Under the pieces are notes generated by a model, which saw only the letters and a program-made list of their open reading frames with translations, was not told where the DNA came from and made no database searches. Below are positions 35,553 to 44,120 of a stretch of 64,000 nt of DNA, piece after piece. Each line of letters opens with the position of its first letter. The stretch's first letter is position 1. The DNA is taken from positions 2,666,001-2,730,000 of the forward strand of contig NZ_CP019402.1 in NCBI RefSeq assembly GCF_002024505.1. Reading direction: 5' to 3'. This DNA is from Plantibacter flavus. GTDB lineage: Bacteria > Actinomycetota > Actinomycetes > Actinomycetales > Microbacteriaceae. The translations under genes were made by a program, and so were the position numbers.

Positions 35553-35590
35553 GCCACCGGGCCGAGCCGTTACGCCGTGTGTCCGCGCGG

Positions 35591-35744
35591 TTGGCGCGTG
35601 CAGGCGGGGCCGGTAGCCTCGGGGTCACGACGGAGCACCACCCGGAGCCACGCCCGGCGACATCGCTGTCGGACCGAGCGGCCTCACCGGCGGCACCCAT
35701 CACCCGAGCAGCACCGACCACCCGAGCAGAGGGGACCATCCACC
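35591..35744 (+). promoter_or_regulatory. metY promoter and 120-base leader
   Basis: TTGGCG (35591-35596), a 17-base spacer and TAGCCT (35614-35619) form the clearest two-part promoter in the window. Transcription would begin near 35626 with GGTCACGA and leave about 120 bases before the metY ATG, which has AGAGGGGACC as ribosome site. The leader is GC-rich and can form several stems. It does not show the conserved core of the SAM-I or SAM-IV riboswitches. Confidence 0.55.
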
Positions 35745-37070
35745 ATGAGCGATGCCACGAACGACTGGAAGTTCGAGACGAAGCAGATCCACTCCGGAGC
35801 AGCGCCCGACCCGGTCACGAAGGCTCGGGCCACGCCGATCTACCAGACCACGAGCTACGTGTTCGACAACGCCGACCACGCCAAGAACCTCTTCGCCCTC
35901 GCGGAGTTCGGCAACATCTACACGCGCATCCAGAACCCGACGCAGGCTGTCGTCGAGGAGCGCCTCAGCGCGCTCGAGGGCGGCAGCGGCGCCCTCCTCC
36001 TCGCCTCCGGGCAGGCGGCGGAGGCCTCGGCGGTCCTCAACATCGCGCAGGCGGGCGACCACATCGTGTCGTCGTCGTCGATCTACGGCGGCACGTACAA
36101 CCTCTTCAAGTACACGCTCGCGAAGCTCGGCATCGAGACCACCTTCGTGGAGAACCAGGACGACGCCGAGGAGTGGCGGCGTGCGGTGCGCCCGAACACG
36201 AAGCTGTTCTTCGCGGAGACCATCGGCAACCCCAAGATCAACATCCTCGACATCCGCCTCGTCGCCGACGTCGCGCACGAGGCCGGCGTCCCGCTGATCG
36301 TCGACAACACGATCGCCACGCCGTACCTCATCCGACCCTTCGAGCACGGAGCGGACATCATCGTCCACTCGGCGACGAAGTTCCTCGGCGGTCACGGCAC
36401 GGTCATCGGCGGGGTCATCGTCGACGGCGGAACCTTCTCCTGGACCGGGCACGCGGACAAGTTCCCGGGCCTCACCACGCCGGACCCCTCGTACCACGGG
36501 GCGGTCTACACCGACGCCGTGGGCGATTCGCTCGCCTACATCATCAAGGCGCGCGTGCAGCTCCTGCGCGACCTGGGTGCGGCCATCGCCCCGGCGAGCG
36601 CCTGGCAGCTCATCCAGGGCATCGAGACGCTCAGCCTCCGCATCGAGCGCCACGTGCAGAACGCCCAGCAGGTCGCCGAGTGGCTCGACGCCCACCCCGA
36701 CATCGCCAGCGTCAACTACTCGGGGCTGCCGTCCAGCCCCTGGTACGCGGCTGCCAACCAGTACGCGCCGAAGGGCGTCGGAGCGGTCCTGTCGTTCGAG
36801 CTCAAGGGCGGGGTCGACGCCGGCCGCGCCTTCGTGAACTCCCTGCAGTTGTTCTCACACCTCGCGAACATCGGCGACGTCCGTTCGCTCGTCATCCACC
36901 CGGCGTCGACGACGCACTCGCAGCTCACTCCGGAGCAGCAGCTCACGGCCGGCGTCACGCCCGGGCTCGTGCGGCTCTCGGTGGGACTCGAGAACATCGA
37001 CGACATCACGGCCGACCTCCAGGCCGGTCTGACCGCCGCGAAGCAGGTCGTCGAGGCCGCCCGGGTCTGA
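35745..37070 (+). CDS. metY: O-acetylhomoserine aminocarboxypropyltransferase (sulfhydrylase)
   Basis: A 441-residue PLP enzyme of the Cys/Met metabolism family. It joins O-acetylhomoserine with sulfide to give homocysteine. IYQTTSYVFDNADHAKNLF and ALEGGSGALLLASGQAAEA are typical of MetY. The Schiff-base lysine is K212 in VHSATKFLGGHGT. DPSYHGAVY and the C-terminal RLSVGLENIDDI also fit. It precedes metX, which makes its substrate; a repeat element separates them. Confidence 0.94.
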   Translation: MSDATNDWKFETKQIHSGAAPDPVTKARATPIYQTTSYVFDNADHAKNLFALAEFGNIYTRIQNPTQAVVEERLSALEGGSGALLLASGQAAEASAVLNIAQAGDHIVSSSSIYGGTYNLFKYTLAKLGIETTFVENQDDAEEWRRAVRPNTKLFFAETIGNPKINILDIRLVADVAHEAGVPLIVDNTIATPYLIRPFEHGADIIVHSATKFLGGHGTVIGGVIVDGGTFSWTGHADKFPGLTTPDPSYHGAVYTDAVGDSLAYIIKARVQLLRDLGAAIAPASAWQLIQGIETLSLRIERHVQNAQQVAEWLDAHPDIASVNYSGLPSSPWYAAANQYAPKGVGAVLSFELKGGVDAGRAFVNSLQLFSHLANIGDVRSLVIHPASTTHSQLTPEQQLTAGVTPGLVRLSVGLENIDDITADLQAGLTAAKQVVEAARV

Positions 37071-41037: not shown

Positions 41038-41684
41038 CGTCACAGGAGTCTCGCATCAGGGTCGGCATCGTCGATGACCACCGGATGCTGCTCGGCGCGC
41101 TCACCGAATGGATCAGGAGCGTCGCCGACGACATCGAACTCGTCGTCGTGACCCCGTCCTGGCCGGAGCTGCTGACGCACCCCGCCTTCCCCGTCGACGT
41201 CCTGCTCCTCGACGTCGACCTCAAGGACAACGTCCCGGTCGCCGTGAAGCTCGCGACGCTGAAGACCACGGGCGTCACGACCGTCCTCATGAGCACCTAC
41301 AGCGACCCGGCAGTGGTCCGTGAAGCCCTGGCCGCGGGCGCCCTGGGCTACCTCGCGAAGAGCGAAGACGCCGAGACCATCGTGCACGCCCTGCGTGCGG
41401 CGTCACGCGGCGAGTCCTACATCTCCCCCGAGCTCGACCTCGCCCTCGCGAGCGGAGCCTCCGGGACCGGCCCCCGCCTCAGCGCGCAGGAGCGTCGTGT
41501 CATGGCGCTGTACGCCGCCGGTGAGCCCGTGAAGATGGTCGCCGAGAGCCTCGGCATCTCCGACGAGACCGCGAAGAGCTACCTCAAGCGCATCCGCGAG
41601 AAGTACCGCAACGCCGGTATCGACGTCGGTACCAAGGTCGCCCTGCGCAAGCGGGCGATCCTCGACGGCATCATCGTCGACTGA
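41034..41684 (+). CDS. LuxR/NarL-type response regulator
   Basis: A 216-residue response regulator. Its receiver domain has VGIVDDHRMLLGAL, phospho-acceptor D60 in VLLLDVDLKD, and a Ser-Thr/Lys switch region ending LGYLAKSEDAE. The C-terminal helix-turn-helix begins LSAQERRVMALYAAGEP and has the recognition region GISDETAKSYLKRIREKY. ATG 41034 overlaps the upstream stop and has AAAGGGGAA before it. The last 282 bases overlap an opposing open frame that lacks its own stop. Confidence 0.92.
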   Translation: MTSQESRIRVGIVDDHRMLLGALTEWIRSVADDIELVVVTPSWPELLTHPAFPVDVLLLDVDLKDNVPVAVKLATLKTTGVTTVLMSTYSDPAVVREALAAGALGYLAKSEDAETIVHALRAASRGESYISPELDLALASGASGTGPRLSAQERRVMALYAAGEPVKMVAESLGISDETAKSYLKRIREKYRNAGIDVGTKVALRKRAILDGIIVD

Positions 41685-42488
41685 CGCGAACCGCTCGGTA
41701 TGGCCGCTCACAACGTGAGCGGCCATACCTGTGTCAGCGCCAGAGGATTGCGAATGCTGTTTCCACTGGGTCTCAGCGTGCGCGTTCGCGTACGCAATGC
41801 AGGAGATGATCACCCCTTCGGAAATGCCGATCGCTGCAGCGATACACGCGGCGCACGCGATCCCGAACGTGACAATGCACGCAGCCGCGCAGAGGGTCGA
41901 CAACAAGGCGAGCGCCCAAGCAGCCACTCCCTGCTGGCCGAGGCACCAATTCAATTCGCCCCACCAATCGCCGCTGCCCGCAACATCCCCGCTTCCCCCG
42001 ACGAGTTGCGCCGCCTCCCTGGCAGTAATCGAGTCAGTGAACGTCAGTTCTCCGTCCTGCCAGGCTGTCAGCGACCCTCCGCCCGCCAGGTCGTCGACGA
42101 ACTCGAGCTCAACCGTGTGCACAAACGCGCCTTCGGAGTCGAACAACACGGTGAAACTCGACAAGGGAGCGATTCCCTGCCCCTCCATCGGGAACCTCAC
42201 CGCCGAGTTTCCATCGACAAGATCCAGAACACTCTCCTCGCCGAGCGCAGGTGCCCCGTGGCCCCGAATGTCCATGTGCTCTCGCGCCGTCGAGGTCAGA
42301 GAAACGCGCTCGACCTCGTCAGTGACCACGGTCGGCGTCTGCGCCGCTGCGCTGTGGAGAAAAGCTGAAACGTCCGCCACCGGGATCGTTTCCGCTGCCG
42401 CGGGTGCGGCATTGAGGCCGAGAGAAGAAAGAGCAATCACGACCAGCGTAGCCAACATTGCTGCTCGGTTTGATCGTTGCCCCTTCAT
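41403..42488 (-). CDS. Halocin C8-like secreted precursor, frame without a stop before its terminator hairpin
   Basis: A secreted protein starting at ATG 42488 (AGGAG upstream). The signal peptide of about 32 residues ends APAAA|ET. A soluble N-terminal part (about 33-175) is followed by a hydrophobic Cys-rich region with cysteines at 182, 200, 204, 212, 215 and 230. This region (WCLGQQGVAAWALALLSTLC, then CIVTFGIACAACIAAAIGIS) resembles the bacteriocin part of halocin C8 precursors, where the N-terminal half acts as immunity protein. No stop follows: the frame passes through the 41697-41729 hairpin and ends at 41403, antisense to the response regulator. Codons after about 253 are probably not natural protein. 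Base composition is visibly lower in GC than the neighbours, suggesting transfer. The function is inferred. Confidence 0.6.
   Translation of the reverse strand: MKGQRSNRAAMLATLVVIALSSLGLNAAPAAAETIPVADVSAFLHSAAAQTPTVVTDEVERVSLTSTAREHMDIRGHGAPALGEESVLDLVDGNSAVRFPMEGQGIAPLSSFTVLFDSEGAFVHTVELEFVDDLAGGGSLTAWQDGELTFTDSITAREAAQLVGGSGDVAGSGDWWGELNWCLGQQGVAAWALALLSTLCAAACIVTFGIACAACIAAAIGISEGVIISCIAYANAHAETQWKQHSQSSGADTGMAAHVVSGHTERFASVDDDAVEDRPLAQGDLGTDVDTGVAVLLADALEVALRGLVGDAEALGDHLHGLTGGVQRHDTTLLRAEAGAGPGGSAREGEVELGGDVGLAA
41697..41729. terminator. Perfect hairpin between response regulator and opposing gene
   Basis: A 15-bp perfect stem GGTATGGCCGCTCAC/GTGAGCGGCCATACC with a 3-base loop. It starts 12 bases after the regulator stop. 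On the minus strand it lies inside the halocin C8-like reading frame (codons 254-264). Confidence 0.7.
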
Positions 42489-42691
42489 CCTCGTGCTCCT
42501 CGAACGCGTCCAACACACGCCGCCGCCGCGACGAAACACCCGAGGGACATTGTCCACAGCACGCTCGCAACCTGCGGAGCGGTCGTCGCTGCGACGAGCG
42601 GTAGTCCTCCTCCAATGCACAGCAGCGCGACGACGACGCCGCGACCCATCCGGCCGTTCCCGGCTGCCGCGCGAGTGCTTCTCTCCACCAT
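42485..42691 (-). CDS. Small two-helix membrane protein coupled to the halocin C8-like gene
   Basis: A 68-residue protein (ATG 42691) with two predicted helices, GRGVVVALLCIGGGLPLVA and TAPQVASVLWTMSLGCFVAA. Its stop overlaps the start of the halocin C8-like gene by four bases, so the two are translated together. The frame opens earlier at GTG 42763, which is eight bases after a -10 hexamer, so a 92-residue form is possible. A role in immunity, export or maturation of the neighbouring product is a guess from position. I do not recognise a family. Confidence 0.55.
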   Translation of the reverse strand: MVERSTRAAAGNGRMGRGVVVALLCIGGGLPLVAATTAPQVASVLWTMSLGCFVAAAACVGRVRGARG

Positions 42692-42771
42692 GAGCTCAAT
42701 CCATCCTGTCGATGAGAGGATCTCGCGATGCCCGCACCGTTGCGGACATCGGTTCGACTCCACCAGCGTAG

Positions 42772-42801
42772 AATTTATGAACTTGAAATTCTAGATGTAA
42801 A
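42772..42801 (-). promoter_or_regulatory. Promoter of the halocin C8-like operon
   Basis: TTTACA (42801-42796), 18 bases, TAAATT (42777-42772). It is unusually AT-rich for this window and close to the standard housekeeping consensus. Confidence 0.65.
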
Positions 42802-42818
42802 CCTGAGACGTGAGCGAG

Positions 42819-44120
42819 TCAGACAGGGATCGGCGCCGTCGGCGGGTTGCGGTCCGCGATCCTGCGCTCCTCGACATCATTCGCGCGGAGGAGCTCACGC
42901 CTGAGCTGCCGACGCTCCACGGAGAAGCTCGTGACGACGATCCCGAGGCCGATCACGGTCAGCACCACACCGGTCCAGACCGGGGCGAGGTAGCCGAGGC
43001 CACCGGCGATGACCACACCGCCGAGGAAGGCCCCGAGCGCGTTGCCGATGTTGAGCGCCGAGTGGTTGAGCGCTGCAGCGAGGGACTGGCTGTCGCCGGC
43101 GACGTCCATGAGCCTCGTCTGGATGGCCGGGCCGAGGCCCTGCGAGGCGAAGCCGACGGCGAAGACGAACAGGAACATCGTCGGAGTCCACGTCGCGGTG
43201 AGCGCCAGGGCCGTCAGGACCACGGTCATGAGCGCGAAGAAGACGATCAGGGCCCGCCTCACCCCACGGTCCGCGAGATGCCCACCGACCAGGTTGCCGA
43301 TCGTCATGCCGACCCCCATGGTCGCGAGCGCCCATGGGACGAGTGTCGCCGACTCCCCCGCGACCTCGGTCACGAGGGGCGCGAGATAGCTGTACACGGC
43401 GAAGAGCCCGCCGAACCCGATCGACCCGAACCCGAGCACGAACCACACCTGGCCGCGCCGGAAGACGCGGAGTTCGCGACGCATCGTCTGCTGCGGATTG
43501 CCCGCCTGCACCGGCACGGCGAACCAGATGGTCACGGTCGCGAGCGCGAAGATGCCGGTGACGATGAGGTAGGCGGAGCGCCACCCGAACTCCTGGCCCA
43601 CCCAAGTCGCGAACGGCACGCCCACGACGTTCGCGATCGTCAGCCCGGTCATGACGAGCGCGACGCCCTTGCCACGCTTCCCCGGCCCCATGAGACTCGC
43701 GGCGACGAGGGCGGCCATGCCGAAGTAGGCGCCGTGCGGCAGCGCCGCGACGAACCGGGCGAGCAGGACGAGGCCGAAGCTCGGCAGGACCGCCGACGCG
43801 AGCGTGCCGACGGTGAACGCGACGCCCAACCAGAGCAGGACGGTCTTGCGCCGGTACCGCGCGACGAGCGCGGCGATCGTCGGCGCACCGACGACGACGC
43901 CGAGCGCGTACGCCGTGATCAACCACGCGGCCTGCGCGTTCGCCTGCTCCTGGCTGCGAGCGGCCAGCTCGGGCAGGAGGTCGGTCGCGATGTTCGGCAG
44001 CAGACCCATCGCCACGAACTCGGTCGTGCCGATGCCGAAGGCCCCGACGGCGAGCGCGAGGATGGCAAGACGAACACGGGTCGGCGACAGCTGCGTCGAC
44101 CCGTCCAGGATGGTGGGCAT
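42819..44120 (-). CDS. MFS transporter, 12-helix sugar/drug efflux type
   Basis: A 433-residue, 12-helix major-facilitator protein close to AraJ/YdhP-type efflux permeases. It begins LAILALAVGAFGIGTTEFVA, a strong marker of that group, and has ARYRRKTVLLW as motif A. ATG 44120 follows TACACT by six bases. A 16-base palindrome overlaps the promoter, so a repressor probably controls it, but none is encoded next to it. Confidence 0.92.
   Translation of the reverse strand: MPTILDGSTQLSPTRVRLAILALAVGAFGIGTTEFVAMGLLPNIATDLLPELAARSQEQANAQAAWLITAYALGVVVGAPTIAALVARYRRKTVLLWLGVAFTVGTLASAVLPSFGLVLLARFVAALPHGAYFGMAALVAASLMGPGKRGKGVALVMTGLTIANVVGVPFATWVGQEFGWRSAYLIVTGIFALATVTIWFAVPVQAGNPQQTMRRELRVFRRGQVWFVLGFGSIGFGGLFAVYSYLAPLVTEVAGESATLVPWALATMGVGMTIGNLVGGHLADRGVRRALIVFFALMTVVLTALALTATWTPTMFLFVFAVGFASQGLGPAIQTRLMDVAGDSQSLAAALNHSALNIGNALGAFLGGVVIAGGLGYLAPVWTGVVLTVIGLGIVVTSFSVERRQLRRELLRANDVEERRIADRNPPTAPIPV

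What the first reader, a model, noticed from the sequence alone, without database searches (positions are those of the whole stretch)
41403..42488. Halocin C8-like precursor gene with no stop codon before its terminator hairpin
The minus-strand frame encodes a signal peptide, a soluble domain and a six-cysteine hydrophobic domain like halocin C8 precursors. The codons run in frame (D252-T253-G254-M255...) straight through the perfect hairpin at 41697-41729 and then 282 bases antisense to the response regulator. If transcription ends at the hairpin, the message has no stop codon and its product would be tagged by trans-translation. If it does not, a fusion with an artificial tail is made. Either the stop was lost after the segment arrived, or the C-terminus is meant to be removed, or the true end is set otherwise.
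Basis: partly seen in the sequence, partly recalled or inferred. Interest (0 to 1): 0.7.

Follow-up and report, generated by a model that had tools for sequence, protein, structure and literature searches.

The report
Bacteriocin-like gene that lost its stop
A two-gene cassette for a small secreted antibacterial-type protein and its likely immunity partner has, in this one genome, lost the stop codon that its compared relatives keep at that spot, so the last part of the reading frame is meaningless antisense sequence.

Summary
In detail: the minus-strand frame 42488-41403 (361 codons) runs through the perfect 15-bp hairpin 41697-41729 and 282 bases antisense to the response regulator. The explanation is simple. 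The natural C-terminus is residue 238 (window 41775). A sister Plantibacter genome carries the same cassette at the same site, 97% identical, with TAG at codon 239 where the window has GAG. All 20 relatives compared, from Plantibacter, Clavibacter, Streptomyces, Bacillus phage and plasmids, end 0-8 residues after the last cysteine. Against the sister, codons 1-238 show 10 synonymous and 6 nonsynonymous differences, the post-stop stretch 0 and 17, so the tail is not selected protein; its open length is unremarkable. So: stop loss after the cassette arrived, or a sequencing error I cannot exclude. A tmRNA gene is present, so a non-stop message would probably be tagged. 'Halocin C8-like' is only an analogy: the NCBI domain model is not met and domain profile comparison is at chance level. 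The cassette belongs to an unnamed six-cysteine family with an adjacent small membrane ORF at 12 of 14 loci viewed. The family is more interesting than the missing stop.

The parts
41775..42488 (-). precursor gene proper, 238 codons (signal peptide, soluble beta domain, six-cysteine helical domain)
   Evidence: Relatives end at this residue; dN 0.011, dS 0.057 against G003 (NG86)
41772..41774 (-). position of the lost stop codon: GAG here, TAG in sister genome G003; the paralogue in the same genome also ends with TAG
41403..41771 (-). artificial open tail after the lost stop, ending at TGA 41405-41403
   Evidence: 0 synonymous / 17 nonsynonymous codon differences in the post-stop stretch (codon 239 included) while the response regulator protein is 217/217 identical
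41697..41729 (.). perfect 15-bp hairpin, possible shared terminator of the convergent genes, beginning 43 nt past the lost stop
   Evidence: no T-run
41775..41966 (-). C-terminal six-cysteine domain, residues 175-238; four predicted helices, the last ending at residue 237, at low to middling confidence (block pLDDT 48-78)
   Evidence: AlphaFold2 model; cysteine spacing 17-3-7-2-14
42000..42371 (-). soluble domain, residues about 40-163, six predicted beta strands, block pLDDT 78-94 over residues 51-160
42396..42488 (-). signal-peptide-like N-terminus (hydrophobic segment residues 9-27)
   Evidence: hydropathy; cleavage site not determined
42485..42691 (-). 68-aa membrane protein with two hydrophobic segments, candidate immunity partner; its TGA overlaps the precursor ATG by 4 nt
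   Evidence: start codon unsettled; function inferred from conserved adjacency
42772..42801 (-). promoter-like site TTTACA-18-TAAATT ahead of the two-gene unit
   Evidence: 1 found in 41600-42900, shuffles mean 0.3, sd 0.6; consensus match only
41683..42817 (.). inserted cassette, between the response regulator stop codon and the end of the MFS gene
   Evidence: absent in 5 of 7 genus genomes, present in G000 and G003

Best explanation
The segment is an acquired two-gene cassette: a small membrane protein (probable immunity) and a secreted precursor whose C-terminal six-cysteine helical domain is probably the active peptide. In this genome the precursor has lost its stop codon (GAG at 41774-41772, where the sister has TAG). 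Shown: the natural end is residue 238, and the extra 123 residues are unselected antisense reading. Inferred: if transcription ends at the hairpin just downstream, the message has no in-frame stop and the product is tagged by tmRNA and degraded; if it does not, a 361-residue fusion with a long tail behind the last helix is made. Either way the precursor is probably impaired while the partner gene stays intact, which would leave an immune non-producer. The lesion looks recent because the rest of the gene is conserved.
For: Sister genome: same cassette, same junction, 97% identity, TAG at codon 239. 20 of 20 relatives compared end 0-8 residues after the last cysteine, the window frame continues 131; a further one from Terribacillus ends on the cysteine itself. 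Codons 1-238: 10 synonymous, 6 nonsynonymous; residues 179-238: 4 and 0; post-stop stretch: 0 and 17 with the antisense regulator protein unchanged. tmRNA gene present, tag ANSKRTDFALAA. The paralogue in the same genome has TAG followed by its own strong hairpin.
Against: The change rests on one assembly; no reads seen. The sister differs at two neighbouring bases here (GCG TAG against GCT GAG), so either each lineage changed once from GCT TAG (the paralogue's codons) or this one changed twice. Termination at the hairpin is not shown: no T-run. No expression, processing or activity data; immunity and antibacterial roles are inferred from anatomy. The model of the C-terminal helices is not confident.
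Confidence: 0.74

Rival explanations
1. Sequencing or assembly error: the real genome has a stop codon at 41774-41772 and the gene is intact.
For: Only one assembly; two neighbouring bases differ from the sister while the 42 codons before them are identical; the rest of the gene looks under purifying selection.
Against: Single-contig genome, completeness 100, contamination 0.32. Across 42 gene-like ORFs compared with G003 only one frame-disrupting gap was seen, and there it is G003 that lacks the base. That comparison speaks to indels more than to substitutions.
Confidence: 0.2
2. Regulated non-stop message, as in ArfA and BrfA: the hairpin makes the message end before the stop and the product escapes only when tmRNA is limiting.
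For: Same geometry: the frame runs through a strong hairpin and tmRNA is present. ArfA and BrfA are documented cases (PMC8012679, passages seen).
Against: The sister, the paralogue and the other relatives compared keep a stop before any such tail, so the geometry is private to this genome as far as seen.
Confidence: 0.03
3. Functional extension: the 123-residue tail is a new part of the protein (for example removed on secretion).
For: It is open and could be translated.
Against: 0 synonymous / 17 nonsynonymous differences; such an open length is met by 31-38% of random starts; no hydrophobic segment in the tail; none of the relatives compared has it.
Confidence: 0.02

Closest known systems
PHROG 33667 and related Bacillus SPbeta-like phage proteins (Goe11, Goe13, Goe14), function unknown
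   Same: The window precursor matches the PHROG profile at E 7.5e-7 over residues 109-230; the Goe14 protein has a signal-peptide-like start, a soluble part and the cysteine domain, with a 54-aa ORF of two hydrophobic segments overlapping it by 4 nt. That the Goe proteins are the PHROG's members was not checked.
   Different: Phage-borne; two extra cysteines and a longer third spacing; partner lies downstream, not upstream
Halocin C8 and NCBI 'halocin C8-like domain' proteins (TIGR04449)
   Same: Precursor with a soluble N-terminal part and a cysteine-rich hydrophobic C-terminal part; C-x3-C-x7-C shared by eye
   Different: TIGR04449 has no match in this genome; hhalign of the domain is reached by 15 of 200 column shuffles and 16 of 100 with cysteines fixed, and by 21 of 200 with more relatives; the candidate immunity protein is a separate gene, whereas halocin C8 and its immunity protein come from one gene (PMC3831642, PMC8628083, passages seen)
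TIGR04450 Gpos_C8_like, putative immunity/bacteriocin fusion protein
   Same: Weak hits from 5 of 15 family precursors scanned, ending at the end of the model, best E 0.043
   Different: All far under the cut-off of 27 bits (best 13.4); the window protein itself gives no hit
ArfA and BrfA genes with a hairpin or terminator inside the frame
   Same: Frame runs through a hairpin before its stop
   Different: There the arrangement is the gene's regulation; here the relatives compared lack it

Membership tests
Halocin C8-like domain (TIGR04449) | score over the curated model cut-off | tested here: not met
   No match in G000 at E 0.001, control rings in Haloferax volcanii; the window protein has no NCBIfam hit to it at E up to 10
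Halocin C8-like domain (TIGR04449) | detectable profile similarity to haloarchaeal members | tested here: inconclusive
   hhalign E 0.0032, probability 9.9% on full proteins; domain alone not above shuffles
Halocin C8 | toxin and immunity released from one precursor | not testable with these tools
   A separate small membrane ORF is the candidate immunity protein; role of the soluble domain unknown
Gpos_C8_like (TIGR04450) | score over the curated cut-off of 27 bits | tested here: not met
   Best relative 13.4 bits; none for the window protein
Six-cysteine precursor family described here (PHROG 33667) | profile match and cysteine spacing 17-3-7-2-14 close to the C-terminus | tested here: met
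   E 7.5e-7; core spacing in 18 of 21 proteins, the window included, one of the 18 with two extra cysteines
Six-cysteine precursor family described here (PHROG 33667) | protein ends within about 10 residues of the last cysteine | tested here: not met
   Window frame continues 131 residues past C230 because the stop is lost; 20 of 20 relatives meet it
Six-cysteine precursor family described here (PHROG 33667) | adjacent small ORF with two hydrophobic segments | tested here: met
   Window ORF 42485-42691; seen at 12 of 14 loci viewed, in one of them fused
ArfA/BrfA-type regulated non-stop genes | arrangement shared with orthologues | tested here: not met
   Orthologue, paralogue and relatives compared have an earlier stop

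The most novel reading that the evidence does not exclude
The stop loss placed a bacteriocin precursor under tmRNA control: the message ends at the hairpin, the product is normally tagged and destroyed, and it is released only when ribosome rescue is overloaded, while the immunity partner is made all the time. This would be a naturally evolved ArfA/BrfA-like switch on an antibacterial peptide.
Probability: 0.03. Interest if true: 0.75.

Novelty: new member of a known kind. Interest (0 to 1): 0.38.

Why it matters
The missing stop is an ordinary mutation or an error, but it exposes an unnamed family of secreted six-cysteine precursors with a small membrane partner, found in Microbacteriaceae, a Streptomyces plasmid, Bacillus-group phages and plasmids and a Levilactobacillus plasmid. 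If these are bacteriocins, this is a wide, uncharacterised two-gene system. The window, together with one relative (L009) broken in another way, hints that the toxin gene may decay while the partner gene is kept; two cases are too few to show it.

Full report
What is there. On the minus strand the frame that starts at ATG 42488 is open to TGA 41405-41403, 361 codons. It passes in frame through a perfect 15-bp hairpin at 41697-41729 and then 282 bases antisense to the response regulator that ends at 41684.

Where the protein should end. The same genome (G000, one contig of 4.21 Mb) has a paralogue, 41% identical, that ends ...YANSHA and TAG. The sister genome G003, whose contig appears in another collection as Plantibacter sp. 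ME-Dv--P-122b, has the orthologue at 97% identity with TAG at codon 239; the window has GAG there. A metagenomic protein (P0001) and one from Plantibacter sp. Mn2098 (P0002) end ...YANAHA and ...YANSHA. I added five loci from four other genomes of the family, six more proteins, two of them named Clavibacter, and records of a Bacillus phage, two Bacillus plasmids, a Streptomyces plasmid and a Levilactobacillus plasmid. Of these relatives 20 of 20 end 0 to 8 residues after the last cysteine; the window frame continues 131 residues after C230. Some of the 20 are near-duplicates (for example the C. nebraskensis protein P0004 and L011), and L009 is the part of a gene after its own internal stop. 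A Terribacillus plasmid protein looked at later ends on its last cysteine.

The tail is not a protein under selection. Against G003, codons 1-238 differ at 10 synonymous and 6 nonsynonymous codons (dN 0.011, dS 0.057 by NG86), residues 179-238 at 4 and 0, and the post-stop stretch at 0 and 17, while the regulator read from the other strand is identical at 217 of 217 residues. A frame open for 123 codons or more is met from 37.5% of random starts in this window (coding frames included) and from 31.0% of starts taken antisense inside 27 conserved genes. The AlphaFold2 model of residues 1-238 (mean pLDDT 68, 11-row alignment) has a confident beta domain and four C-terminal helices of low to middling confidence, the last ending at residue 237.

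History. The response regulator gene is present in 7 of 7 genus genomes. In 5 of them it is followed, after 64 to 214 bases, by the end of the MFS gene; in G000 and G003 that spacer is replaced by about 1,135 bases, 41683-42817. The cassette holds a promoter-like site, a small ORF, the precursor and the hairpin. As the sister has the cassette at the same junction with the stop in place, the stop was most simply lost after arrival. The neighbouring codons differ at two bases (GCT GAG against GCG TAG). The paralogue reads GCT TAG, so one change in each lineage is possible, but this is not proved. A sequencing error cannot be excluded without reads.

How it would behave (inference). If RNA ends at the hairpin, no in-frame stop remains and ribosomes reach the end of the message; the genome has a tmRNA gene, tag ANSKRTDFALAA, and trans-translation is described as the major rescue pathway for such complexes (PMC8012679, passages seen). 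The hairpin has no T-run, so termination is not certain. Otherwise a 361-residue product with a foreign tail would be made. Both would probably impair a peptide whose relatives have a free end close to the last cysteine. The upstream partner is untouched, so an immune non-producer is the likeliest phenotype. ArfA and BrfA show that a frame through a hairpin can be regulation, but the orthologue and paralogue here do not share the arrangement.

What the cassette is. The core cysteine spacing 17-3-7-2-14 is found in 18 of 21 proteins, the window included; L044 among them has two extra cysteines. The other three are L012, with a shorter third gap, and the two Bacillus proteins L040 and L043, with a longer third gap and two extra cysteines. 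A small ORF with two hydrophobic segments lies next to the precursor at 12 of 14 loci viewed: the window, G003, the paralogue, L009-L013 (fused in L012), L040, L042, L043 and L045 (for several the start codon was my choice). It was not found at L041 (the locus stops at the record end) or at L044, where a thioredoxin-family gene follows. In the window and in the Bacillus phage and B. velezensis pairs the two genes overlap by 4 nt. The small proteins are weakly alike (15-22% to the window's, apart from the sister), so their homology is suggested by position more than by sequence. This is the anatomy of a bacteriocin with its immunity protein, but no activity is shown.

Comparison with halocin C8. 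The general plan is similar, but NCBI's halocin C8 domain model has no match in this genome, the Gram-positive C8-like model is reached only far below its cut-off by 5 of 15 precursors scanned and not by the window's, and profile comparison with three haloarchaeal proteins is weak on full proteins and within shuffles for the domain. It may work like such a precursor; membership is not shown. The best formal home is PHROG 33667, function unknown (E 7.5e-7).

Verdict. Observation confirmed, cause ordinary: a stop loss seen only in this genome, or an error, in an otherwise conserved gene of a little-known bacteriocin-like family.

Noticed in passing
L040 2740-3659 (Bacillus phage vB_BsuS-Goe14); L043 1144-2063 (B. 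velezensis plasmid); L045 1039-1977 (Terribacillus plasmid): SPbeta-like phages and Bacillaceae plasmids carry the same kind of cysteine-rich precursor, annotated as hypothetical protein, followed by a 54-55-aa ORF with two hydrophobic segments.
   Followed up: partly
L009 (genome G352, probably Clavibacter: same genus label as G063, whose copy is nearly the C. nebraskensis protein): The precursor copy is interrupted by an in-frame TAG at codon 73 while the adjacent small membrane ORF is intact: a second family member with a broken precursor.
   Followed up: partly
L042 818-1884 (Streptomyces sp. BHT-5-2 plasmid p1): Precursor and small hydrophobic ORF present where the collection's gene table lists no gene.
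   Followed up: no
L044 1258-2127 (Levilactobacillus brevis plasmid): A short family member sits directly before a thioredoxin-family gene, which may mean that disulfides matter for the peptide.
   Followed up: no
L005 1243-2265 (same genome, G000:C1 about 3874630-3875660): Complete paralogous cassette with its own stop and hairpin, lying between two near-identical copies of a short stretch that by eye is the end of a LacI-type regulator gene, which may show how it was inserted.
   Followed up: no
L027 1504-1710 and L028 1499-1705 (haloarchaeal plasmids): The halocin C8-like genes there are also followed by a 68-aa hydrophobic ORF (hydropathy), a parallel to the two-gene plan.
   Followed up: partly
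window 35577-37070: Gene-like ORF with a one-base gap in G003 near its start; either a different start or an error in G003.
   Followed up: no
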